A stretch of DNA of 64,000 bases from the NCBI RefSeq assembly GCF_963662255.1, contig NC_085074.1, positions 868,001-932,000 of the forward strand, written 5' to 3'. Within the stretch, counting starts at the first letter, position 1, and the number at the start of each line of letters is the position of its first letter. A model generated the notes under the pieces. It was not told the origin of the DNA, made no database searches, and worked only from the letters and a program-made list of their open reading frames with translations. This document shows positions 21,201-54,845 of the stretch, piece after piece. This DNA comes from Cinclus cinclus (Eukaryota > Chordata > Aves > Passeriformes > Cinclidae). Position numbers and translations under genes: made by a program.

Positions 21201-24200
21201 GCAGGGAAAGAAACTCACCTAGAGCTCAGCACTGAGCAATGTAGGGCAAGGAAGGACTTTGCCTCTCCTCAGGCCTGTTGGATCTGTTGTTTCTCATTTC
21301 ACTCATTTAGCTCAGTCACACATGATGAACAAATGAGCATTTCCTTTTTGAACACTGATGCTCTGTGCCTGGGGACTTGCAAAGGGCTTTTCTAGAAACC
21401 ATCTTAATGTAAAGGAGTTTTTATTGTCCCTGGGGCACCTCTTATGGCAGTAGAAGTGTGTTAAAATACCAGCTGCTCAGGTTTATCCACCACCCCTACA
21501 CCACAGAGAGCCACTGGCTGCTTGAATTTCGAATGCTTAAAATAAAACTGGGAAGGAAGTGCACGCTCTTGGTTTCAGTGTTAGCACAGCCCTGATTTGC
21601 ATTCAGCCCTGGTCTCTGAGGATGTCGCAAAAGCAGCTGCTAATCTAAGTGTAAAAATCCTGCACCTCCTTCCCATGACCTGGTGTCATTACAAACCACA
21701 CCTGGTAACTGTTCAATCTTTTCCCATGTCCAAGGGCAGCAACACACAGAATTTATTTTCTTTTTTCCATTTGCCGTCTCTCCTCGGCGTGGTTTGTCCC
21801 TTTTGGTTTCTCTCTCGTGGCTGGGTTGCACCACCTTTCCTGGTCATTGTGGCAATTCCAGATGGTTTTAGGGCTGGCCTGGGGCAGCTGAGCTTGACTG
21901 AGCCCTCCAGCACCAAAACAGAACGTGTGCAGGAACTGGGAAGGAGCTCAAATTAAAATTGACCAACAAAACAGAACACCAGGTGTGAGGCTGGGCTGAG
22001 TACAGACCTTACCCAGTGTCCTGTCCTGTTTTCCCTGCAGGTTGGGAGCCGCAGGGTGATCCAGTATGGAGCAGCCTTCATGCTGCTGCTGGGCATGGTG
22101 GGCAAGTTCAGCGCCCTGTTCGCCTCGCTGCCCGACCCCGTGCTGGGGGCTCTCTTCTGCACCCTCTTTGGTAAGGGGGCTTTGTGCTCCTCCTTGCTGA
22201 TTCTGAGCATTTTGCTGCCCTATTTTTTTGAAGAAAAAGACTTATCTGAAAGCTGGTTTTTTTGTGTTTAGGGATGATCACGGCCGTGGGTCTGTCAAAC
22301 CTCCAGTTCATCGATCTGAATTCTTCTCGGAATCTCTTTGTGCTCGGGTTTTCCATTTTCTTTGGGCTCGTCCTCCCAAGCTATCTCAAGCAGAACCCCC
22401 TGGTCACTGGTATGTCCTCCTGCTTCTTCACATCAACATTTGTGCCTTATGCTCACATGGACAATCTATCCAGGTGCAGAGTCATGCACTCAGTGAGAGG
22501 AAACCCAAATTGTGGAGAAAAAAACCCAAACTATGCAGACAGTGAAGGCTTTAGGTCCAGTCAAGCTCTATGTGTGTTCAGAGGAGAATTCATTGGGAGG
22601 TTGAGACCTGCAGGGAATATTCCAGTGGGACACAGCTGAGGCTTTCCTGCTTTCTCTGGGTGCCGTGTAGAGCAATGGGAGAAGGCACTTACCAACCAGG
22701 CTGAAAGAAAAACTGAAAGGGTGAATGGGAGCTGTAAATAATGTTAAAAGATCAAGGGGAAACACCCAAGCAGAGTTTGGAATGTGGGGAATTGTTTGGG
22801 GGTTGTAACTTTTTGTCACTCAGACTTGTTCTGAGTGTGAATTCCTTTGCAGACTGTTAATTAAATTGTAGCTTTGAGGAGTTCACTGGGAAGATTTTCT
22901 GTTTTAATGTTCCCCTCAGCAGTGGTTGTGCCAGGTGTGTGTCGCCAGAGATGGACTCAAAGGAATATTTCACTGCTTTTGGTTTGTTTGGGGCTTTTCT
23001 AACAAAATATTAACTGACTTTTCTTTCCACTATGCCTTCAGATCAGGATTTAAAGGCATATCTGTCCTGCTGTGAGTGGTTAGAAAAGTAGATCCTTCAA
23101 GCTTCATGTGGCTAATGCAGTGTTCTTTCGTAACTGGGGCTGTGAATTCTTGCCCCTTTGAAAAGTAAAGATTTATAAAAATAATTATTTCAGTCCCCAC
23201 AATTTCACAATCGGAACATTTATCTTTTCCATTTCACGATTTTCTGCTTAGCTCAGATTAGTTGTGTCTGCAGTAGGAACTAAAGTGGTGTTTCGTGACA
23301 TTTTTGTGAGCAACTGAGAGTTCCTGAGGTTGCATTTTGGGGAACAATGTTCCGTGGTGGTGCACTGGGGGGAGCTTCTTCTGCACCAACCCCACGTGGC
23401 TTCCAGAGCCCTTCTGGAGCAAATCCCTCACTGAACTTAGCAGCAATGATCCTGCTTGGCCTGGGTGTAAATCAGTAGGATGTGGATGATCAAAAGCCCA
23501 GACAGGTTTTCCCTGTTGCTGCAGGAATAGCAGGCATTGATCAGGTGTTGAACGTCCTGCTCACCACAGCCATGTTCGTCGGGGGCTGCGTCGCCTTCAT
23601 CTTGGATAATACCATCCCAGGTGAGCCCTGAGCTGTCCCTTCCATGCCTGCCAGCACCATTCCTTGGGGCAGGTCAGGAGCAGGACATCCCTGCTTTTGG
23701 GGCTGGCTGTTTCCACACCAGCAGCAGAGTCCTCACACCTGTCCTCCCTTCCCCTGAGAACACCTGGAATCTTTGCCAGGTTAAAGTTAAACACCTAAGA
23801 GAGCTGATAAAAACCAAACCACTATTCAGGAGACAGAGTAAAACTGGCTTTGAGAGCCAAACCTGCTTCCGTTCCATTTCCAAGAGGAAAAATTTGCCTT
23901 GACTTCCAGTTACAAAATAAATAATGTGTTTTTCCCTTTCTGAGGAGGATCTTCCCTTTTGAGGAAGATCTTTCCAGAGATTTGCTGAACTTGCACGCTG
24001 AGCCTTGATGTTTTCTTTCTTCTTTCAGGCTCTGGTTTAGGCCTGTGTGTTCATATAAAGATATCCATGGAGATATGTTATTCTCCTTTTATTTTGATTT
24101 CTAGGAAGCCCTGAAGAAAGGGGAATACGGAAATGGAAGAAAGGGGTTGGTAAAGGAAGCAAATCCCTGGATGGCATGGAAACATATGATCTGCCTTTTG

Positions 24201-35655: not shown

Positions 35656-38600
35656 GTAAGGAGCGGGAGCGCAGCCCGGGGGATTTTTTGGAATTCCAGG
35701 GGGATGGGGGATGTAGGATGTGTTATAGGATGGGTTATCTGTGATCTGGAATGGGTAATAGGGTGTGTAAGGTGTTATCTGTAACCTCAAATGTACAATA
35801 TATAGTAACAGCTAACAATATCTAACAATATGTAACAATATATAAAAATATCTAACAATATATCATGTGTAACATATGATGATATCTAACAATATCTAAC
35901 AGGGTAGAACAATATAGAACCATATAGAACATTATAAATATAATATATAAAATTATCTTATTGCTTATACAATTTTTTGAGCTAAATGTGTACTAATTTA
36001 TATATAAAATATATAATATATAGCATATAACAGTATATAACAATATATAATAATATAACCATATATAGTACATAACAGTATGTAAGATAATAAAAATATA
36101 ACATCATATTTTTATTATAAATAGCATTTATATAACAATATATATAAATATATAGCATTCTAAAAAGGCAATTTCCTTAACAAGAAAACACTTTTTGGTG
36201 GGATTTTGAAATTTTCCTTAGGATTGTGGCCAAATGCTCTAAAACCTCCCATAAAAATGGGCTTTGCTGAAAAAGTCTTGATTAATAATCGTTCTTCTAT
36301 TCTTTGGGGAAAAATGAGACGATTCCTAAGATTTAAGGGAGATTGAAAAGGAGATAAAGCAGAAATGTGAAATTTCCCCCTCTCCTACCCAAATCCCTGT
36401 GGTTTGAGCTGGCTTCATTTGTTTTGTTTTTATTTTCGTATCCATCTTTATTTCCACCTTTTAAAATTTATTTTTATCTTAATTTTTGCCCTTGATTTTC
36501 GCTTTATTTGTATTTTTATCATGAGTTTGCCCCTGGAGCAGGGCTCAGAGCTTTGACATGACCACCTCTCCTGGGATCACTCGTGACTCCAGCATGACCC
36601 CCAGAAAACTATTTATTTTTCAACCTTGTGACCAACTGCCCCGAACTCTGATGGGGTTTCTTGTTCCTTTTCCAAAGATTTGTGGGGGACACGGTCACAG
36701 GCAGTTTCTCCCCCTAAATGTGGGTGCAAAATGTTGGACCCCTAGCAAAAACCTTCAATAAGGGAGGTCTGGAAAGACCCAAATGTGCCTCAAATAAAGC
36801 AATTTTTGGGTCCTCAGCAGCACAGCAGGTTCCTCAGCCAGGGAAGCAATTCCTACTCTTCCCTGGATCCACCCTGAGCAGCTCAGGGGTCACTGGGTGG
36901 TGCCTGCAGCATCTCCCCCCTCACCCCAAACCCCATCTCAGCACCTTTTGTTCCGCTTTTACCCCCAGGAATGAGCTGCTCCTGCACCTGAAGACCTACA
37001 ACATCTACTACGAGGGGCAGAACCTGCAGCTTCGGCACCGGGAGGTGAGAAATGCCCTGGGCAGGGGGGAATTGAGGGAGTTGAGACAGAGAATCACAGA
37101 CTCATGGAATGGTTTGGGGGAGAAGGGACCTTCAATCAATCCTGTCCCACCTGTGCCATGGGCAGGGACATCTTCCACTGTCCATGGGTGCTCCAGCCTG
37201 GTCTTGGACACTTCCAGAGATCCAGGGCCAGCAACAGCTGCTCTGGGAATTCCATCCCAGCCCTTCACCCAAAATTCTTTCCCCATATCCCATCTAAACC
37301 CGCCCATGAAATCCTGGATTTGGGTTGGAAGGGACCAGCCAGTGCCACCATGGGCAGACACCTCCCACTGTCCCAGGCTGCTTCAAGTTCATCCAGCATG
37401 ACCTTGGGCACTGCCAGGGATCCCGGAGCAGCCACAGCTCCTCTGGTAATTCCATCCCAGCCCCTCCCCACCCTCCCAGCCAGGAATTCCTTCCCAAAAT
37501 CCCATCTAAACATGGAATGTTTTGGATTGGAGGGGATCTTAAGGATGATCGCATTCTGTGGGTGGATACTGACACCTCCCACTACCCCAGGGTGCCCCAA
37601 GCCCTGTCCTTGGGCTCTGTAAACTGGGATCACTGAATCTGCTGGATCCTCTCAGTGGGGATGGAATTGGTCCCTGATGTCCTTTCCTGTTTCCGTGTCC
37701 TGTGTTTTCCATGGTTTGTCAAAGTGAAGCCACACTTGCTGTCCCCATTCCTGATTTGCTTCAGCACAGCTCCCAGGAAGATCTGCCCCTTACCAGCCCC
37801 AGGAGCAAGAGAGAGCCCAAAAACCCAAACCACAGAAAGTCTGGGTTCGAAAAGAGCTCCCAGCCCCCAATCCCCAGTCCACATTCCCAGCTTTTCCCTG
37901 GACTGCTAATCCCTGTGTGTGTCGCAGGAGGAAGGGGAGCTGATCGTGGAGGGGCTGCTGAACATCTCGTGGGGGCTGCGCCGCCCCATCCGCCTGCAGA
38001 TGCAGGATGACAACCAACGCATCCGCCCACCTCCCTCCTCCTCCTCATGGCACTCGGGCTGCAACCTGGGTGCCCACGGGTGAGTGTGGGGCACAGGCAG
38101 CCCCAAAAATACACAGCCTCAAAAATACACAGCCCCAGAAACACCCTGAGACAGCCCCAAAAAACATTCAGCCCCCAAAACAGGTAGAAATCTCTAAAAA
38201 CACACAGAGAGCCCCAAGAATACACAGACAGCCTCAAAAATACACAGCCCCAGAAACACACTGAGACAGCCCGAAAACATACAGCCTTAAAAATACATAG
38301 ACAGCCCCAGAAATACACTGAGACAGCCCCAAAAGCATACAGCCTCAAAAATACATAGACAGCCCCAAGAACACACTATGACGGCCCCAGAAACACACTG
38401 AGATGGCCCCAGAAACATACAGCCTTAAAAATACATAGACAGCCTCAAAATCGCACTCAGACAGCCTCAAAAATCTACAGATAGCCTCAAAAATACACAG
38501 ACAGCCCCAAAAACACACAGGGACCCCCAAAATCACATACAGACAGCCCAAAACACATTCAGCCCCCAAAACAGGTAAGAAATCTCTAAAAACACACTGA

Positions 38601-41600
38601 GAGCCCCAAAAATACACAGCCCAAAGAACACACCAGGACCCCCAGAAATACACACAACCACAGAAACAGGCAGGCACTTGCCAAAACCACGGATGCACAC
38701 CTCCAAAACCACACAGGCATCCCCCAAAACACCCCCCAGCCTGACAGGGTTTGCTGGTTGCACCCCCAGCTGCCTCCTCCAGGATTTTTGTCCCAGCTGG
38801 AATCAGCAGCTGGGGGCAGGAAATGAGGGGCAGAGATTCCCTGGATTGTTGTTCTCTCTGCGGCCCCACACGGACAGGGACTCACAGACAGGGACACACG
38901 GACAGGGACACACGGACAGGACACCCAGCAGCCCTCTGTCTTCTCCAGGTCTGTGCTGAAGCCCAGCACACTGCCGGACATCCCGGTGACAGACGGAGAC
39001 ACCGCACCCAGCACGGAGAACCCTGGGAAAGGCGCAGGTGAGCCGGGCTCGGACACACCGGGATTGGTCCTGGTGCTCGGGAGCAGCTCCGGTTTTACCT
39101 GGGAAAACACAAACCGGGCTTTGTCCTTCACTCCAGACTCAGTTTTCCATCCTGCTCCAGCTCAGCTACTCCCAAAGCACCTTGGATTATTTTATTCAGT
39201 TTTTCCCCGGACCACCCAAAACTTGATTATCTTTTCCAACCCCAATGATTCTCTGATTCCCAAGGATTTTTTCTTGGGTAAGGGGCAGCACTGAGATGTG
39301 GAGGAGCTTGGAAAGGACCGAGAGGATGGAGGAGAGATCCCTCGTGGGATTGCAGGGAAAAGGAGGCAAAGGAGGATGTTGGAGCTTCCCCTTCCCTTTT
39401 CAGGAAGAATAATGAGAGTGTTGGGAAGCGTTACCATGGGGAAGTCACAGCTGCTGAGAAGCATTTGTCCCCAGGGTTTGTCCCCTCCTGGTTCCTCCTC
39501 TGCAAAGGGGGAAGAGCCTCCTTAACCCCTTGTTCTGAGGAGCGGAGCACAGGCTGTCCCACCAGGAATTCCTGCAGGAAAAACCTGCTGCATGCATTTT
39601 GCTCATTCAACTCTGGCAGCTGTTCTAGTTTTTTGGTATTTTTTTGGGGGGTAGAGAAGGATGAGATCATCCTTTTGAGAGGAGCTGAGCCAAACTTGGT
39701 GCAGGAGCCCCCATCTGTGATCCTCCAATTTTTCATTTTTCTTTTTGCTCTCCACACTCACAGCACTTCTCCCCCCTTCATTAAATCTTTCCCAGGCAAT
39801 GCCCACCCCATATCACCCCAGCATGATTCCTCTCAGATTTATGGCCTCAATCCTCTGCCAGCACATAAGAAAAAAAAGCCTTTTATTACATTTTCCCCTA
39901 AATTCCAGTAAAAATCAGTGCCCGGCCTGCGTGCACAGCTCTTTGGGAGTGCTTGGTTCCCGCATATGCAGCTGGAGTAGCTTCTGCCAGAGGTTTCTCC
40001 CTGCTGCAGACACACTTTGAATTAAAACACCCAGAGCTGGAGCCTGTGAGGTTCATTAAAAATGGATGAAGAGCTGGTTTATAATAATCTGGATCCAGGC
40101 CAGTTTTTATGCAGAGATCTGAGGCTCTGCCCTCACTTGCTTGCTCTCATTACAGGGAAGGAGAACAGAGAAAGTTAAATTATGGAAAAGAGAGGGAAGA
40201 TGCTCCAATTCCCAGGAGAAGGGGCTTTATCCAGGTGGCAGCAGGGATTTAGGCGGTTAATTCTGAATTAATGACCTTCCTTGGGAGCTGGGGGAGGATA
40301 AACCGGGAGCTGGGGGAGAATAAACAGGCTGCTGTGTCTTGGGAAGTTTGCAGGGGTGAGAAGTCTGTTCTTGGGGTGAGGATTTCTGCATCCAAGGGGG
40401 GACTCCCAGAGGCTGTTTCGCAGCAGGAAAATTCTGGAATCATGGAATCTCCTGAGTGGGAAGGGACCACAAGGATTCTTGACCCAGTAGACACCAACAA
40501 TCCCACCCTGCACTGGGAGTGTTGCCCAAAAACTCCTGGAGGAGACCCCTGAGTGGCTGTCATGATCTGTGCAGCCCTGGGAACACATTCTCCAAATGCT
40601 CCCCAGAGGAAAACAAGGGTGCTTCCCAGTGTCCCCAGTCCCCACACCCCGGGTCCCGTGGGTGTTTTGCAGCCCCCAGGCCGGCAGAGGAGGCCCCGCA
40701 GCTGATGCGGACCCGCAGCGACGTTGGCGTCCGGCCCCGCGGCAGCGTCCGCACGCCCGGCGAGCAGCGGCGGCTGCGCCGGCACCGCTTCTCCATCAAC
40801 GGCCACTTCTATAACCACAAGGTGAGCCCGTGGTGCCTTGGGTTGGCTTTGGTGTTTTTCGGACTCTCTGCTGTCTGGTGTGTAACTCTGAGACTTCATA
40901 TTGGGTGTGTACTGGTTTGAAAGCAAAACCAGTAAGAGACTCCAAGTCAGAGATACAATTTAATAGGAAAAACAGAGAAAAATTAAATACATGCAATAGT
41001 ACAAAAGAAAAGCACTGGCAGAATCCAAATACAACCTGACACTCTATTACTTAGAGTGATTGTAGCAGTCCAGATGAAGTGGTCTTGTTGAAGTAGTGAT
41101 CCTGTAGAAAGGTCTGGTAGCTCTTGTCCTCTGGAAACCAGTGGGTAAAGGCTGCCTTGGTGTTCCAAAGCTTAGTTTTTATCCAGGTAGGAAATGCTCG
41201 GCTCCTCCCCATGGGTGGAGCAGCTCCCAATGGGATGATGTAATTTGATCAGCCGTGCAGTGGGACTCAATGGCCCATTAACAGGAGATATCTCCTGGAG
41301 GGAGGATGGGTTGTGGAAGAGATAAACAACACTGCCCCAGCTGGTTTAACAGATGGTGATAGAACACACAGCCCTGCTCACATCCTGTGTTGCAACCAGG
41401 GCAAGGTGTTAGTAAGTTCTCTTCACAGAGTGGTTGAACAAAACAATTCCTTTCTAGCTAGAGAATCAAGGACAACTGGTACCCAAAAAGCAGAAACAAT
41501 GGCGAGGGAAAGGGGGCAAGCCAGGGGGCTGAGACTTCATAGCCTGAGGCTGTGGTTGGACAATTGACCCCAATGTGTAAATGAACCAAAACTTATAAAA

Positions 41601-44600
41601 GTATAAAACTCATGACAGGGATCCATCTTGGGTTGGACTTGGGAGCTGCTCCAGCACTACCAAGGTGCATCCTTTCAATAAATACCGATTATATTCCTTT
41701 AGCTCTGCCCAGTCTCTGTTCCAGCTCAGCCTCTCCCAGCACCAGACCCTTCCAGGATCCTCCTGGGATCTGGACAGGGCTCTCAGTGCTCTTTGTGCCC
41801 CACAGACCTCGGTATTCACGCCCGCCTACGGCTCCGTCACTAACGTGCGCATCAACAGCGCCATGACCACACCACAGGTGCTCAAACTGCTGCTCAACAA
41901 ATTCAAGGTGAGGGCTGGACCCTCCCCTCAGTGCTCCCAGGCTGCTCTGAATGCAGCTTGTGGTGTGCTTAAAATAAATAAATATACTTTATATATTGTA
42001 TGTATAAAACCTGATGTGATGTGATGTGATGTTATGTTATGTTATGTTATTTATTGAAATATTTATATAATATATATGTAATTTGCATCCAGATATTATA
42101 TATATTATTTTATACATATATAACATATTTGCATTATATATATAATATACATTTGGATTATATGTATATATCTGAATTTTTATTTGATGTGTAAATCTTT
42201 ATATAATATAGAAATGTTTACATTATGTAAAAAATCCTTATATTGCATGTATAAAATCTGCATTCACATTTTATAAAATATTTAACATAAAGTATATAAA
42301 ATTTTAATATACTTTTACTATAATTTTAATATATAATAATACACATAGTTTTTATTTTAGAAAAACTATATAAAAAATTTATCTATAAAATCTATACCCT
42401 ATATACATATAGCTTTGCATCTCTCTCCAGATCGAGAACTCTGCAGAGGAGTTTGCTCTGTATATGGTGCACACAAGTGGAGGTGAGTGCCCCAAATTAC
42501 CTCTGGATGTGAGCACCCCAAACCCCTGGGAGTGAACACCCCATACCCCTGGGTGTGAGCACCCCAAACCCCTGGGAGTGAGCACCCCAAACCCCTGGGT
42601 GTGAGCACCCCAAACCCCTGGGAGTGAACACCCCAAACCCCTGGGTGTGAGCACCCCAAACCCCTGGGAGTGAACACCCCATACCCCTGGGTGTGAGCAC
42701 CCCAAACCCCTGGGAGTGAACACCCCAAACCCCTGGGTGTGAGCACCCCAAACCCCTGGGAGTGAACACCCCAAACCCCTGGGTGTGAGCACCCCAAACC
42801 CCTGGGAGTGAACACCCCATACCCCTGGGTGTGAGCACCCCAAACCCCTGGGAGTGAGCACCCCAAACCCCTGGGTGTGAGCACCCCAAACCCCTGGGAG
42901 TGAACACCCCAAACCCCTGGGTGTGAGCACCCCAAACCCCTGGGAGTGAACACCCCAAACCCCTGGGTGTGAGCACCCCAAACCCCTGGGAGTGAACACC
43001 CCATACCCCTGGGTGTGAGCACCCCAAACCCCTGGGAGTGAACACCCCAAACCCCTGGGTGTGAGCACCCCAAACCCCTGGGAGTGAACACCCCAAACCC
43101 CTGGGTGTGAGCACCCCAAACCCCTGGGAGTGAACACCCCATACCCCTGGGTGTGAGCACCCCAAACCCCTGGGAGTGAGCACCCCAAACCCCTGGGTGT
43201 GAGCACCCCAAACCCCTGGGAGTGAACACCCCAAACCCCTGGGTGTGAGCACCCCAAACCCCTGGGAGTGAGCACCCCAAACCCCTGGGTGTGAGCACCC
43301 CAAACCCCTGGGAGTGAGCACCCCAAACCCCTGGGAGTGAACACCCCAAACCCCTGGGTGTGAGCACCCCAAACCCCTGGGAGTGAACACCCCAAACCCC
43401 TGGGTGTGAGCACCCCAAACCCCTGGGAGTGAACACCCCAAACCCCTGGGTGTGAGCACCCCAAACCCCTGGGAGTGAATACCCCAAACCCCTGGGTGTG
43501 AGCACCCCATACCCCTGGGTGTGAGCACCCCAAACCCCCATCCTGGAGTGCCCCAATCCCCGCGGCGCTGCTCCTCGTGCCCAGCCCGCGCTTCTGGCGT
43601 TGCAGAGAAGCAGAAGCTGCGCGGTAGCGACTTCCCCCTGCTCGCCCGCATCCTGCAGGGCCCCTGCGAGCAGGTGTCCAAGGTGTTCCTCATGGAGAAG
43701 GACCAGGTGGAAGAGGTCACCTACGACGTGAGTGTCACCCTCAGGTGGGCTTGGAAAAACCCGGGGGGTCACGGGATCGTGGAGTGGTTTGGGTTGGAGG
43801 GACCTTAAAGCCCGCCCAGTGCCACCCCTGACACCTCCTGCTGCCCCAGGCTGCTCCAAGCTCCAATGTCCAACCTGGTTTTGGGCACTTCAGGGATCCA
43901 GGAGCAGCTACATCTTTTCTGGGAATTCCATCCCAGCCCCCCTCCCCACCCTCCCGGGGAGGAATTTATCCCCGATGAGCAGATGCGTGCTGGAGCTGCA
44001 GGAGCTGCTGTGCTCCTGCGCCTCTCCGTGGAAAGTCCCGATCCTTCGGGAAACTCCTTGTTCGGTGTTCCAAGAGCAGCTTCCAGCTGCCAGGCGGAGC
44101 AGACGCCCCCAGCCCGGTTGTGCCATCCCGAATCTGATCACGGTAGAGCGCTTTCAGCGCGGAGAAATTGTTGTTTTTCCAGGAGGGCGGGAGCGGCTCC
44201 CTTGTGCCATCTGCCGGCTCGCCCAGGCCGGCTGTGCTCTGAAATCCCGGCTCAGAGCGAGCACTTTTGGAGTGAATTTGGGCTTAAGCAGCTCTGAGAC
44301 TCTGGGGACACTCAAGACAGGATGAGTTAAAGTGGATCTTTCCTCCAGTATTTATTCAGTGCTTGCTTGTTTGCACGAGCTGATGGTCATAAACATTTTA
44401 ATTTTTAGGGTTTGCTGTAATATTTTGGGATCCTTGGTAAAATTTAAGGAGAGGATGGGGTGGGGGGGGTCAATTCATCACGCTCTTCACCATTTCCTGC
44501 TGCTCCTCTCCCACCCAGGTCGCCCAGTACATCAAATTCGAGATGCCCATCCTCAGGAGCTTCATCCAGAAGCTGGAGGAGGAGGAGGATCGGGAAGTGA

Positions 44601-44850
44601 AGAAGCTGAAGCACAAGTACATGGGGTCTGGGGGGGCTGCTGGGAGGAAAGAACATTCCTGGGGGGGCTGCTTTGATCCCAAAAAATTCATTTGTGTGGC
44701 CCTGCACCCCCAATGCGGGGTTTGCATTATTTCAGGGTTTCCTTGGATGCTGAAAAATCTCTTTTTTCCTTGTGCTCCAGATACTCCATCATGCGGCTGA
44801 TGATCGAGCAGAGGCTGGAGGAGATTTCTGAGGGCCCAACGGCGATGTGA
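35600..44850 (+). CDS. RASSF2: RASSF2, Ras-association (RA) and SARAH domain protein; 10 coding exons
   Basis: Tumour-suppressor scaffold of the C-terminal RASSF class; the family binds K-Ras-GTP through RA and MST1/2 kinases through SARAH. Coding exons: 35600-35655, 36969-37044, 37928-38079, 38949-39037, 40673-40821, 41806-41907, 42431-42482, 43606-43727, 44519-44616, 44781-44850. All junctions are GT/AG and in frame, giving 321 aa (mammalian about 326). A basic nuclear-localisation-like stretch [10 protein letters not shown] is at 156-165. RA domain about 171-259. SARAH coiled coil about 267-314 ([17 protein letters not shown]). The start was chosen because [18 protein letters not shown] aligns with the vertebrate N-terminus; the upstream in-exon ATG at 35590 is in another frame. 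The acidic linker at about 95-125 (exon 4) is the least conserved part against what I recall of mammals. Introns are unusually repeat-laden. Confidence 0.98.
35760..36165. repeat. AT-rich ATCTAACAATAT-type repeat block
   Basis: Imperfect iterations of AACAATAT / ATATAACA with almost no G or C, in RASSF2 coding intron 1. The sequence returns to normal intron at about 36.17 kb. Confidence 0.85.
36969..37044 (+). CDS. RASSF2: RASSF2 coding exon 2 (residues 19-44)
   Basis: (R)[17 protein letters not shown] to LRHRE, strongly conserved. Acceptor cccccag|G, donor GAG|gtgaga. Confidence 0.97.
37088..37640 (-). mobile_element. Three consecutive inverted CR1 3' fragments
   Basis: Three CR1 tails in the same orientation follow one another at about 37088-37305, 37306-37510 and 37511-37640. 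Each starts with a 'tggttTgggttggaaggga'-like end and the first two run to 'gggaattccatcccagccc' or similar. They lie in RASSF2 intron 2. Confidence 0.8.
37928..38079 (+). CDS. RASSF2: RASSF2 coding exon 3 (residues 45-95)
   Basis: [20 protein letters not shown] to SGCNLGAH plus GG. Acceptor gtcgcag|GAG, donor CGG|gtgagt. Confidence 0.97.
38095..38720 (+). repeat. ACAGCCCCAAAAATACAC minisatellite (RASSF2 intron 3)
   Basis: More than 25 imperfect copies of an 18-22 bp unit of the form ACAGCCxCAxAAATACACxGAG fill most of the intron 3 start. The - strand therefore reads as a spurious Cys/Trp/Phe-rich open frame. Confidence 0.9.
38949..39037 (+). CDS. RASSF2: RASSF2 coding exon 4 (residues 95-125)
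   Basis: (G)[16 protein letters not shown] to NPGKGA plus G. Low-complexity acidic/polar linker, poorly conserved. Called from phase, splice sites and position. Acceptor ctccag|G, donor GCAG|gtgagc. Confidence 0.9.
40436..40610 (-). mobile_element. CR1-like 3' fragment, inverted
   Basis: Reads 'ggaatcatggaatctcctgag' then 'gggaagggaccacaaggat' and 'cacaatcccaccctgc'-like blocks, a diverged reverse CR1 tail just before RASSF2 exon 5. Confidence 0.65.
40673..40821 (+). CDS. RASSF2: RASSF2 coding exon 5 (residues 125-174), basic region
   Basis: (A)[18 protein letters not shown] to INGHFYNHK, including the Arg-rich stretch. GC-rich exon. Acceptor ttttgcag|CC, donor AAG|gtgagc. Confidence 0.97.
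40905..41440 (-). mobile_element. Avian ERV LTR-like segment, probably - strand
   Basis: Starts TGTGTACTGG; its reverse complement carries ATTAAA followed by a terminal block ending CCAGTACACA, as expected for an LTR R/U5. I recall this family as common in songbird genomes; class (ERVL-like) is not certain. No gag/pol/env reading frame is attached, so it is a solo LTR or fragment. Lies in RASSF2 intron 5. Confidence 0.55.
41500..41745 (+). mobile_element. Second LTR-like segment, + strand, ending before RASSF2 exon 6
   Basis: Has TATAAAA at 41594-41600 and AATAAA at 41677-41682, about 80 bp apart, followed by a pyrimidine-rich U5-like stretch: the layout of an LTR U3-R-U5. Coding sequence is absent. 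It ends within about 60 bp of the exon 6 acceptor. Confidence 0.55.
41806..41907 (+). CDS. RASSF2: RASSF2 coding exon 6 (residues 175-208), RA domain
   Basis: [10 protein letters not shown] to LLLNKFK, start of the ubiquitin-like RA fold. Acceptor ccccacag|ACC, donor AAG|gtgagg. An LTR element ends shortly upstream. Confidence 0.97.
42005..42420. repeat. AT-rich block with GATGT/TTATG pentanucleotide run
   Basis: Starts with TGATG and TTATG pentamers (about 42015-42051), then about 370 bp of nearly pure A/T up to the polypyrimidine tract of RASSF2 exon 7. Confidence 0.85.
42431..42482 (+). CDS. RASSF2: RASSF2 coding exon 7 (residues 209-225/226), RA domain
   Basis: [17 protein letters not shown] plus G. 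Very short exon, 52 bp, between an AT-rich block and a 1-kb minisatellite that starts at its donor (GGAG|gtgagt). Confidence 0.97.
42483..43538 (+). repeat. 23-bp minisatellite filling RASSF2 intron 7
   Basis: About 45 nearly identical copies of a 23-bp unit, two alternating types: GTGAGCACCCCAAACCCCTG+GGA and GTGAACACCCCAAACCCCTG+GGT. A CCCCATACCCC variant recurs at 42543, 42681, 42819, 43003 and 43141, spacing 138, 138, 184 and 138, i.e. a higher-order repeat of six units with one eight-unit step. The first, diverged unit is the exon 7 splice donor itself (gtgagtgcccc). 23x3 = 69 explains open frames on the - strand in all three phases. Confidence 0.97.
43606..43727 (+). CDS. RASSF2: RASSF2 coding exon 8 (residues 226-266), RA domain end
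   Basis: (E)[10 protein letters not shown] to VEEVTYD. Acceptor gttgcag|AG, donor GAC|gtgagt. Confidence 0.97.
43775..43975 (-). mobile_element. CR1 LINE 3' fragment, inverted
   Basis: 'gatcgtggagtggtttgggttggagggacc' to 'gggaattccatcccagcccc', a reverse CR1 tail in RASSF2 intron 8. Confidence 0.88.
44519..44616 (+). CDS. RASSF2: RASSF2 coding exon 9 (residues 267-299), SARAH
   Basis: [17 protein letters not shown] to EVKKLKH plus AA. Charged coiled-coil heptads. Donor AA|gtacat; reading on past it would give an in-frame extension, so the donor is set by continuity with exon 10. Confidence 0.95.
44781..44850 (+). CDS. RASSF2: RASSF2 terminal coding exon 10 (residues 299-321)
   Basis: (K)[15 protein letters not shown] to GPTAM, stop TGA at 44848-44850. 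Acceptor tgctccag|A. Confidence 0.97.
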
Positions 44851-45960: not shown

Positions 45961-46439
45961 ATGAAACCCCCTGAGTCAGAGTCTGGCTTGTCCAAAATAA
46001 ATCACTTTGTGTGGATAGAAATGCCATGGAAATGAGTAAAAAATGAGATGAGGGGAAAGAGTAAAACCTGTCTGAATCCCAGTGGAGAAGTTTCCCAAGG
46101 AGAAATGCTCTCACCTTCTAGATTTGCAGAGTCACATCCAAATTTCTTGAGGATTTTTTGGGGAATATTGGGGTGACACACTTTGAACTCTTGTGGTCTT
46201 TAAGGACATCTGGAACAAATAACACCTCTGGGCTCCCTGGAGTGATCTGGTGACGCAGAGAAAATTAATTATACACACTCCAAATCCTGGAGTGTGTACA
46301 GGAGCCACGCAGGGAGGAATTACAGTTCTGATAAATATTGAAAATATACCCAGCCCGCAGGGATGATTTATCCCTAGACAACGGGAGGCCGGCAGGCTCC
46401 ATCCTCTGGGTATTTCTCTCCCCGAAGGTAAATCTCGAA

Positions 46440-46638
46440 TTGTTTTGGCCTGCTGGATGCTGAGCTGCTGCTTCCCGCGGGGTGTCCCGGCTGTCCCCGG
46501 AGCTCAGCCAGCCCACCGCGTTATCCCTCCCCGCGCAGGAGGGGCAGGACTTCCCGCTCATCCCACCGGGAAAAGTCCGGAGCGAGCCGAGCCCGGCGGG
46601 CACAGACGGGAAGAGCCAGCACCGGCCCCGGCGCACGG
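46440..46638 (+). other. Candidate promoter and non-coding exon 1 of the Shadoo-like gene
   Basis: CpG-rich block isolated in AT-neutral DNA, ending in a strong donor CACGG|gtaaggg at 46638/46639. Splicing to the acceptor ctccgcag before 48258 would give a 5'UTR intron of 1.6 kb, matching the intron position of PRNP and SPRN genes. There is no TATA box. Inferred from composition and splice motifs only; the start is unknown. Confidence 0.5.
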
Positions 46639-47431
46639 GTAAGGGCAGCACCCTTGGATCTGCGGGGTGAAAAGAGAAGGAATTGGGTGCAGAGAAAAGT
46701 GAAAATCAAAAGGGTTTGGCACACACCTGAGCTGGAGGTTAGGGTGGGGAGAGGACCTGCGGGATGCTCCAGCGCTGGGATTTTCCCTGGCTGGTGATCC
46801 CTAAGTTTGGGGGAAATAGAGAGGAGGGAAAATAGGAAGGGAAAAATCCTTGTGTCAGGATTTTTTGTGGGATTTGCCATCTGGTTTTGTGGTGTTTCCA
46901 GCCGTGGTGTAGCTGCCAACAGCTGGAAGGGGGCACTACTCTGTGCTTTCTTTGAAATAACTCAAATAACTGGAGGAATGGGGCAGGAAAACCAGGAAAA
47001 TTCAATTAATCAAGGCTGATTTTAATTTTTGAAGTGCTGGGTTTGGAAGACGGGGATGTCAGGCCTGGCACCTTCCAGTGGGGAGGGAATTGCTGACAAA
47101 GGGATGCCACGGCCGGGGCTGCCGGCCAGTGGGGCTCTGCTTTGTCAAAGGCCTTTTGTCAACACGGCCGCTGCTGTTTTGGGGATGATTTCGGGCCTGC
47201 GATGGCTCAGCAGCTTCAGCACAATGAGTCTGTCTGCTCAGCCAGGGGCTGCGGGGGGCGGGACGGGGCCACAGTCTCATCCCGGGGCTCCGGAGCTCCG
47301 CAGCGGGCTGCGGGGAATGGAGGGTTTGGGGGAATTCGGGGAGTTGGGAGGGATTTTTGCCCCACGGTGCCCACCCTCCCTGTTTGGCAAAAGTATGGGA
47401 TGAGGCAAAAATGCACAGTAATGCATTAAAT

Positions 47432-47520
47432 CACAGAATCGTGGAGTGGGGTGGGTTGGAAGGGGCATTAAAGATCATCCAGGCCAACCCCTCGACATGG
47501 GCAGGGACACTTTCCACTGG
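47432..47520 (-). mobile_element. CR1 3' end, inverted
   Basis: 'aatcacagaatcgtggagtg' plus 'gggttggaaggggcattaaag' and 'ccaacccctcgacatgggcag': the last about 90 bp of CR1, in the putative 5'UTR intron of the Shadoo-like gene. Confidence 0.85.
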
Positions 47521-47524
47521 AATG

Positions 47525-47870
47525 TATTAACTACATATCAATATAATATATAAAAATATGTATGAATGCATAAAAATATAATCAAATAATATAATACAGA
47601 TATAATAATATATAATACACACTATTACTATATATTAATGATCTCTATTAGAAATTATTGGTTATTGGTCACATATTGTTATATATAATATGTATCTAAT
47701 ATATACATACTTATATATATGTTATGTAATTCTATGTATATATAAATAAATCATAGAGATAATGTCTAGAGACAGAGATAATATATTGAGATAAACAGAG
47801 ACAATATAGAGATAAATAGAGATAATATCTTGAGATAATGTATATATAGAGATAGTACATTGATATAAAA
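47525..47870. repeat. AT-rich simple repeat block
   Basis: ATATAAT and GAGATAATA iterations, nearly free of C, between two CR1 pieces in the same intron. Confidence 0.85.
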
Positions 47871-47949
47871 GACACTGAGGTTAGCTTGGTGCTAAGAACA
47901 CCATGTTTGGTGGTTTGGGAAGATCCCTCCCTGCACGTGCCACTCACAG

Positions 47950-48140
47950 AATCAGCGACTCACACACTCAGAACCACAGACTCACAGAATCGCACTCAGA
48001 ACCACAGAATGAAGCAGGTGGAAAAAGACCTTTGAGGTCACCAAGTCCAACCTGTGACCCAACACCACCTCGTCAACCAAACCACGGAAGAGTTGCACTG
48101 GATCCTTGCGGGTCCCTCCCAACTCCGAGGTGACTCAGCG
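47950..48140 (-). mobile_element. CR1 3' fragment, inverted
   Basis: 'cagaatgaagcaggtggaaaaagacctttgaggtcaccaag' and 'tccaacctgtgacccaacacc' are typical of reverse CR1 tails. Repeated ACTCACAGAATC / AACCACAGA words precede it. Ends about 110 bp before the Shadoo-like coding exon. Confidence 0.75.
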
Positions 48141-48267
48141 AGGTGAGATGAATCAGTGAAACCCAAACAGCCGCACAAACCAAGAACTCCGTTAAAGGCG
48201 GGCGGGCGCTGCTCGGGCCCGGGATCGCCGCTCTCAGCGCCCCTCGTTGCTCCGCAGGTGGGGCAGG

Positions 48268-48705
48268 ATGCGGCCCCTGGACCACGCCTGGTGCTGGGCG
48301 GTGATGCTGCTGCTCGCCCTCCTCAGCGACGCTGCCGGCGGCCGCCGCGGGGCCGGCGGGAGGAGCCCGGGGGCCGGGGGGCTCCGCGGGGGCTTTCGCG
48401 CCGTGTCCCGCGGCGGGGGCGCCCCGGGCCGCGGCTCCAAGGTGGCCGGAGCCATCGCGGCCGGCGCCGCCGCGGGCTACGGGATGGGGCTGCTCGGTCG
48501 CCCGCGGCCGTCCCGCCTGGGTCACGGCATCCCGGCGGCGAGGCAGCCTCCATCCACGGGTGGGTTCCACACCGGGGGCTGGCCCGAGCTGGGGGGCAAG
48601 CGGGGACCCCCCAGCAGAGCCCCCGGGGAGCGGCGTTCTGGGCTCGGGCTCGCCCTGCTCCTGGCATCGGGCGCCTGCCTCGTCAGCCACGGGCTGCAGC
48701 GCTGA
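48268..48705 (+). CDS. Shadoo-like (SPRN/prion family) GPI-type protein, 145 aa
   Basis: Intronless coding frame with ATG at 48268, ten bases after acceptor tccgcag, stop TGA at 48703-48705. Order of parts: signal peptide about 1-23 (hydrophobic AVMLLLALL); Gly/Arg-rich basic region 25-57 with RG/GGR/RGG motifs; hydrophobic Ala/Gly core 58-76 (KVAGAIAAGAAAGYGMGLL), strikingly like the PrP core KHVAGAAAAG...GGYAMG; low-complexity Pro/Gly/Ser linker 78-123; C-terminal hydrophobic segment 125-139 suited to a GPI-anchor signal. This is the Shadoo plan, without the folded PrP/doppel domain. Unlike mammalian Shadoo it has no Asn at all, hence no N-glycosylation site, and its only cysteines are in the two cleaved signals. 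It lies between RASSF2 and PRNP and converges on PRNP. Avian SPRN proper is expected at another locus, so this may be the counterpart of fish Sho2 (SPRNB). Family call firm, orthology inferred. Confidence 0.85.
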   Translation: MRPLDHAWCWAVMLLLALLSDAAGGRRGAGGRSPGAGGLRGGFRAVSRGGGAPGRGSKVAGAIAAGAAAGYGMGLLGRPRPSRLGHGIPAARQPPSTGGFHTGGWPELGGKRGPPSRAPGERRSGLGLALLLASGACLVSHGLQR

Positions 48706-49043
48706 GGGGCGCACGGGGACCCCCGGCCGGCTGCGCCCGCCGGCGTTTCTGAGAAAAATGACTTCCTGGGGGATTGGATGTTGTTTGGGGATTGGGGAGA
48801 GGCTGGGCAGCCGGCCCGGGGCTCACCGGGAGCCGCATGGATCCTGCGAACCCCACCCGGGACAGCACCTGCGCGAGCAAAGCCAGCCCTGCAAGGACCT
48901 GTGGAGATCGGCATCCGCAGCCGTGCCGGAGCCTGGATTCCCGTTGCACGGCTTCACCAAAAACCGCTCCTTTCCCCCCAGAAGAGCGCTGGGACTCGCG
49001 GGGAGGGGGGTGTGGGGCTTAGAAACGGAGCCCTCCGCCTTGC

Positions 49044-49049
49044 AATAAA
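49044..49049 (+). promoter_or_regulatory. Polyadenylation signal AATAAA, Shadoo-like gene
   Basis: TTGCAATAAAGTTTGACC at 340 bp past the stop, followed within 30 bp by T-rich sequence. Confidence 0.7.
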
Positions 49050-50194
49050 GTTTGACCTTGAGACATCCTCGGATTTTAACCAAATCCATCTTTTTTTAGC
49101 ACCGGGAGCCACACAGGGAATGGGAATTTTCAAAGGAAGCTGTGTGGGACAAACCCTGCTTGGTCCCATCTCTCTGGCTTTGATATGATCTGTCCTAGTC
49201 CTTAATAACCCAATTTTCAGCATTTCTTGCCCAAAACACACACAGCTGTTGGACTGACCCTCTCTCAGGTGCTTTTTTTTTGTCAGAGAGGAGGCAAATC
49301 CTGCATGGAAGAGATGAAAAGGAGCAGTGAGGGATGTTTTGGTCTCCAGCAGCTGTGTTTCCTTCTCTAATCCCTGTCCTGGGGGGGTTAAACCTTCTCC
49401 AAATCCAGGTTTTAGCCGCAGCAGCACAACCATTGCTGTCAGAACATAAAATAAAGAGGTGGCAGGTGGAAAATTGTTCCAAAAAAAGCTTCTGGGCAGG
49501 TGTAATCTTATTAATTGAGTGCTCAGTGAGGGTTTTTTGAGGCTGGGTGTTTGTGAGTGGGTCATCTCTCCTGGGTTTTTGGGGATATGAATGCCCTTAT
49601 CATCTGCCCAGGAAGGGAGAGGGTTGGGCTTCACCTCTAGCGAGGGTTGAAAGGAGCCCCAGGCAACAGATATTTAATTTTGGGGGGCTCTTTTACAGTA
49701 TTATTTTAAAATATTACAAAAGTCATTTGGCTTTTAAGGGATTCAGCAACTTTTTGGAGCAGGGATGACCCCAAGGCCCGCGGCCTTGTCCATATCACCA
49801 GCATCCCTGGCTAAGGAGCAGCTTTTAGGCTGTACCAGCCCATCCACACCCACAATGCACCAAGGGGTTCTTATTTCATGGGTTCGTTTGAAAACACCAA
49901 ACCAACTCGGCAGAACCTCCGGCCACAGCTCAGATTTGCATTTTTCCACCATTTATTTTGCATCGAGACCCAGGTTAAGCTTCAGTGTCTGCATCCCTCA
50001 CAAGCATTCTCTGCACCTGGCCCTGATTTGAGCTCAGAAATGCTGCAGGAATGATCCCGCACTTCCTACATCACATTCCCGAATTTTTCTTGCCTTTCCC
50101 TTCCTGTCACTGAGCAATACACATGAATGCTTCTGACGTGGGAAAGATTTCTCACACACACATGGAGAGCCAGGGCAAGGGGAAATGTTTCCCA

Positions 50195-54059: not shown

Positions 54060-54845
54060 CTAGTGCAGGGCGAAGAGGAGGAGGAGCAGCAGGGCGGCCA
54101 GCGAGGCGTCGGCGAGGTGCGGCCGCATGCCCGAGGCCAGGCGGTACTCCTGGTACTGCTGGATGCACATCTCACGGATCACCTTGGTCACCACGCGCGC
54201 CTCCAGCTCCGCCTCCGTCTGGTTGGCGGCCGTGCCGGCGTCCGAGGCGTTCTTCTTGGCGGCGGGGCCGATGTTGTGCTCGGTGACGGTGATGTTGAAG
54301 CAGTCGGCCACGAAAACGTCCTGCGGCACGGGGCCGCGCTGGTCACGGTAGTCGCGGTAGTAGACCTGGTTGGGATAGCGCGCGGCGTTCTCGTTCCACC
54401 AGCGGTACTCGTCAGGGCTGTCGAAGCGATAGTGCATCCCCGACATCACCCTGCCCATGGCGTAGCCCCCCAAGCCCCCCACCACGGCGCCTGCCGCCGC
54501 CGCCCCCGCCACGTGCTTGAAGCTGGGCTTGGGCTTGGGCGCCTTCCACGGCTTCTGGTGGTAACTTCCTCCGCTGGACGGGTTGTAGCCCTGTCCCCAG
54601 CCCGGGTAGCCGGGGTTGTGGGGGTATCCGGGATTGTGGGGGTAGCCGGGGTTGTGGGGGTAGCTTGGATTGTGGGGGTAGCCAGGGTTTTGGGGGTAGC
54701 CGGGCTGGCGGGGGTAGCTGGGCTGGCGGTGGCTCCCCGTGCCCCAGCCGGGTTTGCCTTTGCCCTTCTTGGCCGAGGCGAGGTCGGTGCAGACGCCGAG
54801 GAGCAGCAGCAGCAGCAGGCAGCGGGTGCCGAGGAGCCTGGCCAT
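54060..54845 (-). CDS. PRNP: PRNP, major prion protein (PrP), 261 aa
   Basis: GPI-anchored neuronal surface glycoprotein, wholly encoded in one exon. Start ATG is complement of 54843-54845, two bases after a CCCACAG acceptor; a longer in-frame upstream ATG (54894-54896) lies in the intron and is rejected. Parts: signal peptide 1-25; basic KKGKGKPGWG 26-35; Pro/Tyr hexapeptide repeats about 42-85 (PSYPRQ, PGYPQN, PGYPHN, PSYPHN, two PGYPHN, PGYPGWGQ), the avian substitute for mammalian octarepeats; hydrophobic core 110-131 (KHVAGAAAAG...GGYAMG); folded domain about 132-238 with the disulfide pair C182/C227; sequons N184 (NIT), N199 (NAS), N208 (NQT); GPI signal with a Leu-rich tail 249-260. 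It has fewer hexarepeats than I recall for chicken PrP, and the YYRDYRDQRGPVPQ loop seems a few residues longer. Intact, no frameshift. Confidence 0.98.
   Translation of the reverse strand: MARLLGTRCLLLLLLLGVCTDLASAKKGKGKPGWGTGSHRQPSYPRQPGYPQNPGYPHNPSYPHNPGYPHNPGYPHNPGYPGWGQGYNPSSGGSYHQKPWKAPKPKPSFKHVAGAAAAGAVVGGLGGYAMGRVMSGMHYRFDSPDEYRWWNENAARYPNQVYYRDYRDQRGPVPQDVFVADCFNITVTEHNIGPAAKKNASDAGTAANQTEAELEARVVTKVIREMCIQQYQEYRLASGMRPHLADASLAALLLLLLFALH

What the first reader, a model, noticed from the sequence alone, without database searches (positions are those of the whole stretch)
46440..49070. Shadoo-like prion-family gene between RASSF2 and PRNP in a bird
Seen: a 145-codon frame with signal peptide, RG-rich segment, prion-type Ala/Gly hydrophobic core (KVAGAIAAGAAAGYGMG) and GPI-type tail, flanked by a splice acceptor and a poly(A) signal. 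Known: tetrapod SPRN (Shadoo) lies at a different locus, near ECHS1/PAOX-type neighbours, while fish have a second Shadoo (Sho2/SPRNB) beside their PrP genes. Inferred: this is either the avian survivor of that second, PRNP-linked Shadoo or an independent duplicate. It is short, GC-rich and unlike PrP outside the core, so it may be missing or unnamed in automatic annotations.
Basis: partly seen in the sequence, partly recalled or inferred. Interest (0 to 1): 0.87.

Follow-up and report, generated by a model that had tools for sequence, protein, structure and literature searches.

The report
Second Shadoo gene beside bird PRNP
Birds, and at least one sea turtle, carry a small, conserved relative of the prion-family gene Shadoo, and in this bird it lies right next to the prion gene, where an earlier survey found none in land vertebrates.

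Summary
Window 48268-48705 (+) encodes 145 aa: signal peptide, RG-rich stretch, prion-type Ala/Gly core, hydrophobic tail. Anatomy fits a two-exon gene (donor 46639, acceptor 48257, AATAAA 49044), tail to tail with PRNP, 5 kb away, on the RASSF2 side. It is not chance: 23 protein clusters look like the same gene, from 9 named birds (passerines to Rhea), one sea turtle and 13 unnamed sources. The core is at least 92% identical in the 14 other bird-type rows measured; 2 of the 23 (a crow model and a truncated frame) lack it. Pfam's Shadoo model misses it, but a profile comparison links it to SPRN (96.9%; 0 of 100 fully segment-shuffled controls reach that score). It is distinct from true SPRN. 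NCBI already predicts it in birds as 'shadow of prion protein-like', 'spidroin-1-like' or 'uncharacterized'. A 2007 survey reported no PRNP-linked Shadoo (SPRNB) in tetrapods; my paper searches listed none. Orthology with fish Sho2 or PrP-like is plausible but untested. PRNP linkage is seen only in this window. Function is inferred.

The parts
46048..46638 (+). 5' leader exon (left end uncertain)
   Evidence: tblastn of the NCBI crow model P0019 matches 46048-46158 (E 8e-11) and 46386-46646 (E 7e-18); zebra finch model P0018 matches 46088-46621 (E 5.5e-9). Splicing 46638 to 48258 in silico gives GWGRMRPLD, as in P0019
46639..46644 (+). splice donor GTAAGG
   Evidence: sequence; the crow junction reading agrees
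47202..47255 (+). possible alternative first exon
   Evidence: N-terminus of the Calypte anna model P0015 matches here at 67% over 18 aa, E 0.024; weak
48250..48257 (+). splice acceptor CTCCGCAG
   Evidence: sequence; crow P0019 and hummingbird P0015 models both read GWGRM across it, while the window's unspliced DNA reads RRWGRM
48268..48705 (+). coding sequence, 145 aa, Shadoo-like protein
48268..48339 (+). signal peptide, residues 1-24
   Evidence: KD15 peak 1.97; predicted helix 3-24
48340..48435 (+). RG-rich flexible stretch, residues 25-56
   Evidence: block pLDDT 44-57; identity mean 0.81, minimum 0.50 in 14 bird-type rows
48436..48507 (+). prion-type hydrophobic core, residues 57-80
   Evidence: identity mean 0.99, minimum 0.92 in 14 other bird-type rows, 0.67-0.71 in 3 reptile-type rows; short helix 57-68 at low confidence, pLDDT about 50
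48634..48702 (+). C-terminal hydrophobic tail, residues 123-145 (GPI signal or membrane tail)
   Evidence: KD15 peak 2.19; predicted helix 124-144; no GPI predictor run
49044..49049 (+). AATAAA poly(A) signal
54060..54845 (-). PRNP coding sequence (neighbour, tail to tail)
   Evidence: PF00377 E 2.9e-34, 118 bits
40705..44847 (+). RASSF2 C-terminal exons (neighbour)
   Evidence: SARAH domain PF16517 E 1.2e-10; RA domain part E 0.0012, 19.8 bits, below its cut-off of 21 (4 of the 6 slices scanned gave no family); other exons by eye and recalled motifs
22289..22348 (+). SLC23A2-type exon (neighbour)
   Evidence: recalled motifs GLSNLQ, SRNLF and NLFVLG in one frame; not confirmed by a family search

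Best explanation
This is a real, selectively kept prion-family gene: a second Shadoo-type paralogue, present in birds and at least one turtle, which in this bird lies on the 3' side of PRNP, between PRNP and RASSF2. It most likely works as Shadoo does. The signal peptide sends it to the ER, the C-terminal hydrophobic segment tethers it to the outer cell surface (probably by GPI), and the mature chain stays unfolded. The near-invariant Ala/Gly core is the working part: it contacts the membrane or pairs with the cores of PrP, SPRN-Shadoo or itself, and so tunes PrP-type surface signalling and membrane conductance. Shown here: the frame and its signals, its neighbours in this window, its conservation, its profile kinship to SPRN, its distinctness from SPRN, and a model without a folded domain. 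Inferred: secretion, tethering, interaction, physiological role, and PRNP linkage in other species.
For: Anatomy; PRNP and RASSF2 neighbours; 23 protein clusters of the gene; core mean identity 0.99 in the 14 bird-type rows of A4, against 0.62-0.81 in the other four segments; profile link to SPRN 96.9%, E 1.3e-10, 70 columns, 0 of 100 controls with all segments shuffled reach the score; split from two SPRN-type proteins 100/98; only three helices predicted, at signal, core and tail, mean pLDDT 57.6. For true Shadoo, ionic currents in cultured cells depend on its arginine motif and hydrophobic domain and fall when PrP is co-expressed (PMC5098206, abstract).
Against: PF14999 gives no hit for the window protein or the 10 relatives scanned. 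The signal peptide carries much of the profile score: with only it left in order 2 of 100 shuffles still reach the score, and with the core alone shuffled the probability stays at a median of 94.5% (0 of 100 reach the score). The RG stretch adds nothing (74 of 100 reach the score with it shuffled). The SPRN profile has two rows, one of them (P0025) below PF14999's cut-off. The arginine motif that Shadoo currents need is only partly present (R40, R44, R48). Birds lack Shadoo's N-glycosylation sequon. Two of 23 relatives lack the core: the crow model P0019 (the crow-like P0002 has it, so a model or assembly fault is likely but unproven) and the 77-aa P0021. Taken singly against the window, the reptile-type copies match weakly (tblastn E 1.9e-4, 0.004 and 2.3); their membership rests on profiles. 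No species was shown to hold both this gene and SPRN. No RNA, protein or dN/dS data. No locus DNA of another species was seen.
Confidence: 0.78

Rival explanations
1. It is the tetrapod orthologue of the fish gene beside PrP (PrP-like/PrP3, or Sho2/SPRNB): an ancestral PRNP-linked Shadoo kept in sauropsids and lost in mammals.
For: It lies on the 3' side of PRNP, towards RASSF2. [quoted passage not shown] The gene is in both birds and a turtle.
Against: No fish, frog or mammal copy was named in three protein searches; these need shared 5-residue words, and the last two scored only the 8000 candidates sharing most words. Zebrafish PrP3 has histidine-bearing repeats after its hydrophobic region (PMC11711791 section 7); this protein has none. 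SPRNB lies between calsenilin and PrP1 (PMC1781936 passage).
Confidence: 0.5
2. It is a sauropsid-only duplicate of SPRN, inserted beside PRNP after the split from mammals, with no link to the fish genes.
For: Profile kinship to SPRN; only birds and a turtle among the 10 named sources.
Against: It has a leader intron, shared with the crow model, which argues against a retrocopy; landing by chance next to PRNP is unlikely. The branch to SPRN is very long (2.16 + 0.72 changes per column), which fits age, though fast change after a duplication would look the same.
Confidence: 0.3
3. It is the ordinary avian SPRN gene, moved to this locus.
For: NCBI names the Rhea copy plainly 'shadow of prion protein'. 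No one species was shown here to have both genes.
Against: Another bird, Gavia stellata, has a protein that does match PF14999 (59.8 bits) and falls on the other side of a 100/98 split; chicken SPRN is on chromosome 6 by the enoyl-CoA hydratase gene (PMC1781936).
Confidence: 0.04
4. It is a chance GC-rich open frame or a decaying pseudogene.
For: 80% GC in the frame, where long frames are common; a 249-codon frame overlaps on the other strand; 2 of 23 relatives lack the core.
Against: In one search, 16 of 23 relatives align from the first codons to within 6 bases of the last codon (one of them, P0019, without the core), and 6 more over most of the frame. The core is nearly invariant while linker and tail vary.
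Confidence: 0.03

Closest known systems
Shadoo (SPRN, Pfam PF14999)
   Same: Signal peptide, RG-rich stretch, Ala/Gly hydrophobic core, similar length, coding region in one exon after a leader exon, no folded domain predicted here.
   Different: Not matched by PF14999; core continues as GYGMGLLGR; no KGG start; arginine spacing irregular; no N-glycosylation sequon in bird-type copies (reptile-type copies have NWS); beside PRNP, not beside the SPRN neighbours.
Fish PrP-like (PrP3, PrP-rel-2)
   Same: Adjacent to PrP; grouped with Shadoos; short, with a hydrophobic core (PMC1781936, PMC11711791).
   Different: PrP3 has histidine-bearing repeats after the core; none here. Sequences not compared.
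Fish Sho2 (SPRNB)
   Same: A Shadoo-type gene next to a PrP gene.
   Different: Lies between calsenilin and PrP1 in fish (PMC1781936); sequences not compared.
PrP (PRNP) and Doppel (PRND)
   Same: Signal peptide resembles the window's PrP (hhalign 17.5%, 31 columns of the signal region); PrP also has a hydrophobic core; Doppel is downstream of PRNP in mammals.
   Different: No globular Prion domain PF00377; no PrP-type repeats.

Membership tests
Prion protein family, Shadoo branch (broad sense) | signal peptide + RG-rich stretch + Ala/Gly hydrophobic core + hydrophobic C-terminus, no globular domain | tested here: met
   no PF00377
Prion protein family, Shadoo branch (broad sense) | sequence homology to known SPRN beyond composition | tested here: met
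   hhalign 96.9%, E 1.3e-10; reached by 0 of 100 controls with all segments shuffled, 0 of 100 with signal only, 0 of 100 with core only, 0 of 100 with all but the core, 2 of 100 with all but the signal, 74 of 100 with RG only
SPRN proper | match to Pfam PF14999 | tested here: not met
   no hit at E <= 10 for the window and 10 of 23 relatives scanned; Gavia SPRN gives 59.8 bits
SPRN proper | conserved NXT glycosylation motif after the core | tested here: not met
   no sequon in the window or the 20 other bird-type rows; NWS in the 3 reptile-type rows; NRT in the two SPRN-type rows; feature from PMC4324250 passages
SPRN proper | RGG box starting KGG with regularly spaced arginines | tested here: not met
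   window reads GGRRGAGGRS; only R40, R44 and R48 are at tetrad spacing (sequence; definition from PMC2735946 passages)
SPRN proper | locus beside its usual neighbours (GTP-binding protein, PAOX; enoyl-CoA hydratase in chicken) | tested here: not met
   lies between RASSF2 and PRNP
Fish PrP-like (PrP3) | adjacent to a PrP gene, on the RASSF2 side | tested here: met
   window order; adjacency in fish from PMC1781936 section 10; the RASSF2 side in fish is recalled
Fish PrP-like (PrP3) | His-bearing repeats after the core | tested here: not met
   no such repeat in residues 81-122 (sequence); feature from PMC11711791 section 7
Fish Sho2/SPRNB or PrP-like | groups with fish genes in a tree | not tested
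Doppel (PRND) | Prion/Doppel alpha-helical domain PF00377 | tested here: not met
   no family at E <= 10; model shows no globular domain
GPI-anchored surface protein | cleaved C-terminal GPI signal | tested here: inconclusive
   hydrophobic tail present but ends in polar residues; no predictor or experiment

The most novel reading that the evidence does not exclude
The gene is the tetrapod survivor of the ancestral PRNP-linked Shadoo (the 'SPRNB2' of Premzl's model). A Shadoo next to the prion gene then predates the fish-tetrapod split, birds and turtles still have three prion-family genes where two are counted for birds, and mammals have Doppel at that spot instead.
Probability: 0.5. Interest if true: 0.75.

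Novelty: new member of a known kind. Interest (0 to 1): 0.62.

Why it matters
The physiological role of PrP is still argued over, and work on redundancy counts PrP, Doppel and Shadoo. A further Shadoo-type protein, encoded 5 kb from PRNP in a bird and perhaps co-regulated with it, would add a player that bird and reptile studies may have missed. If its fish orthology holds, it contradicts the published inference that PRNP-linked Shadoo genes arose only in fish (PMC1781936), and it gives a direct test of the model in which PRNP's N-terminal half came from such a neighbour gene (as reviewed in PMC5382174, passages). Practically, the automatic names 'spidroin-1-like' (Prinia) and 'translation initiation factor IF-2-like' (Corvus) are wrong, and the Rhea record named 'shadow of prion protein' is this gene, which could mislead comparative SPRN studies.

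Tried and rejected
Chance GC-rich frame: rejected on conservation. SPRN moved here: disfavoured. Doppel or a PrP fragment: rejected, no PF00377. A PRNT relation was considered because PRNT lies in opposite orientation beside PRND; the passages read put its frame at 42% identity to Doppel's (PMC3427297), so I dropped it without a sequence comparison. Solved-structure search of the window protein gave three weak hits (E 0.41-0.75). Related-locus scans confirmed nothing: viral contigs, 120 pattern matches, none confirmed; prokaryote contigs, 349, none confirmed. Rfam scan of the window: 0 matches. The bacterial promoter scan is not meaningful here. No fold search was run, because mean pLDDT was 57.6. 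In the tree the three reptile-type rows fell inside the birds on a long branch with weak support (82/82); a tree holding the 19 bird-type rows together is not rejected (p-AU 0.36). dN/dS was not possible: no DNA of relatives was available. Rows dropped: P0019 (core missing) and P0021 (77 aa) are not in the tree, A4 or A6 (A1 was made before they were found); A4, on which the segment identities rest, also lacks P0005, P0007, P0008 and P0018, which have the core by eye; A6, used for the fold, also lacks P0005, P0015, P0018 and P0023.
Full report
What is there. Its left flank carries a splice acceptor (48250-48257), and 1.6 kb upstream an exon ends in GCGCACGG|GTAAGG (46638/46639). An AATAAA lies at 49044. 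Splicing the two exons in silico reads ...HGWGRMRPLD; the NCBI crow model (P0019) reads ...QGWGRMRPLD and the hummingbird model (P0015) ...EGWGRMRPLD, whereas the window's unspliced DNA reads RRWGRM. The crow and zebra finch models also match the window upstream, within 46048-46646 (best E 7e-18 and 5.5e-9). So two gene models use the same acceptor, and the crow model the same donor within the limits of a protein comparison; the hummingbird model starts from another upstream piece (47202-47255, E 0.024), and the zebra finch junction was not resolved. The upstream frames differ between species and the crow's upstream start is out of frame in the window, so the start at the signal peptide is the likely one (inference).

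Surroundings. PRNP is on the minus strand at 54060-54845 (PF00377, 118 bits). RASSF2 runs on the + strand and ends near 44847 (SARAH domain PF16517, E 1.2e-10; RA fragment 19.8 bits, just under its cut-off; the other 4 of 6 slices gave no family). An SLC23A2-type exon lies near 22.3 kb (motifs recalled). The order is SLC23A2, RASSF2, this gene, PRNP. The gene points the same way as RASSF2 and is tail to tail with PRNP, about 5 kb from PRNP's stop codon. On the 3' side of PRNP, mammals have prnd, rassf2 and slc23a2 (PMC3203146 passage), and fish have PrP-like adjacent to PrP2 (PMC1781936 section 10); that PrP-like lies on the RASSF2 side is my recall. I saw no recognisable KCNIP or PROM2 gene at 55-64 kb (eye and recalled motifs only).

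Not chance. Three searches of a 5.8-billion-protein set gave 17, 22 and 22 rows; the last two scored only the 8000 candidates sharing most words. Of the 25 distinct proteins, I take 23 to be this gene and 2 to be SPRN-type (P0022, P0025). The bird-only profile found reptile-type P0020 at E 1.5e-26; P0023 (turtle) and P0024 came from a profile that already held P0020 (E 1.9e-39 and 1.5e-33), and singly against the window the three match weakly (P0020 E 0.004, P0023 1.9e-4, P0024 2.3). NCBI's names: 'shadow of prion protein(-like)' in 4, 'spidroin-1-like' in 1, 'translation initiation factor IF-2-like' in 1, 'uncharacterized' in 3, 'unnamed protein product' in the turtle. No chicken, duck or quail record was named; with a word-based search and 90% clusters that is not evidence of loss. 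Identity to the window by segment in the 14 other bird-type rows of A4: signal 0.75, RG stretch 0.81, core 0.99 (minimum 0.92), linker 0.73, tail 0.62; in three reptile-type rows the core keeps 0.67-0.71 and the linker 0.24-0.31. A4 leaves out 6 of 20 bird-type clusters, among them P0019 and P0021, which lack the core. The pattern is that of a constrained core; dN/dS could not be computed.

What it is. Pfam's Shadoo model does not find it: no hit at E <= 10 for the window or the 10 relatives scanned of 23, while the SPRN of Gavia stellata scores 59.8 bits. Profile comparison of the gene's alignment with two SPRN-type proteins gives 96.9% and E 1.3e-10 over signal peptide to core. Column shuffles inside segments of the SPRN pair, 100 each, reaching the observed score: all segments 0; signal only 0; core only 0; all but core 0; all but signal 2; RG only 74. 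So signal peptide and core both contribute, the signal most, and the RG stretch is composition. Probabilities stay high in some controls (median 83.6% with the signal shuffled, 94.5% with the core shuffled), so the score, not the probability, separates them. Against the window's PrP the profile aligns only the signal peptide, at 17.5%. P0025 is itself under PF14999's cut-off (17.9 against 27), so the SPRN profile is thin.

Separate gene. In a 24-row tree (P0019 and P0021 left out) the SPRN pair and the 22 copies part with 100/98 support. The window, the four named passerines in the tree and two unnamed rows form a 7-row group at 100/99, as expected of vertical descent. The three reptile-type rows fall inside birds with weak support; holding all 19 bird-type rows together costs 1.5 log units and is not rejected (p-AU 0.36). 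The tree is unrooted and has one named bird SPRN, so it cannot date the duplication by itself. The dating rests on shared presence: birds including Rhea and a turtle hold copies closer to each other than to bird SPRN, so the gene most likely predates the bird-turtle split. No single species was shown to hold both genes.

How it probably works. AlphaFold gives mean pLDDT 57.6 and three helices only: signal 3-24, core 57-68 (low confidence), tail 124-144. That is Shadoo's plan: secreted, tethered at the C-terminus, unfolded, with a membrane-active or dimerising core. For Shadoo, currents need its arginine motif and its own hydrophobic domain and are damped by PrP (PMC5098206 abstract). Here the core is the conserved part and the arginine motif is only partial, so I commit to the core as the working element, tuning PrP-type surface activity; this step is inferred. 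The reptile-type copies have a glycosylation sequon NWS where bird-type copies read SWP, GWP or the like, so birds appear to have lost the glycan. The GPI claim is open: a hydrophobic tail is present in 23 of the 24 rows of the gene including the window (the truncated P0021 lacks it) but ends in polar residues in the window.

Known or new. Premzl and Gamulin (PMC1781936; [quoted passage not shown] A review (PMC5382174, passages) repeats that SPRNB2 descendants are found in fish and thought deleted or unrecognisable in the mammalian lineage. Ten library searches listed no paper that I recognised as dealing with this gene; four of them showed only the top of longer lists (15 of 3,867; 20 of 41; 6 of 8,083; 6 of 10). 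The library lacks most subscription papers. I did not look up Premzl 2004 and Harrison 2010 (known from citations) or Rivera-Milla 2006 (recalled), so I do not claim the gene is unpublished. Bird SPRN papers (quail PMC11394228 and duck PMC11171214, passages) deal with the other gene, from primers based on chicken BN000836.

Verdict. A real, old, Shadoo-type paralogue of birds and a turtle, beside PRNP in this window, present in databases under wrong or vague names. The fish orthology is the interesting open step.

Noticed in passing
42499-43538: 46-bp minisatellite, 22.6 copies at 97% match, inside a RASSF2 intron; it creates frames of over 400 codons on the minus strand.
   Followed up: no
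47202-47255: Stretch matching the N-terminus of the hummingbird gene model (E 0.024), perhaps an alternative first exon.
   Followed up: partly
46457: An upstream ATG in the leader exon is in frame with the coding exon after splicing, so a longer N-terminus is possible on paper.
   Followed up: partly
P0019 (Corvus kubaryi): Gene model lacks the hydrophobic core, replaced by unrelated residues; perhaps a false intron or assembly fault, since the crow-like P0002 has the core.
   Followed up: no
P0020, P0023, P0024: Reptile-type copies carry an N-glycosylation sequon NWS that none of the bird-type copies has.
   Followed up: partly
38092-38619: Diverged CA-rich tandem repeats (AT skew 0.49 in 38001-39000) upstream of the RASSF2 exons found.
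   Followed up: no
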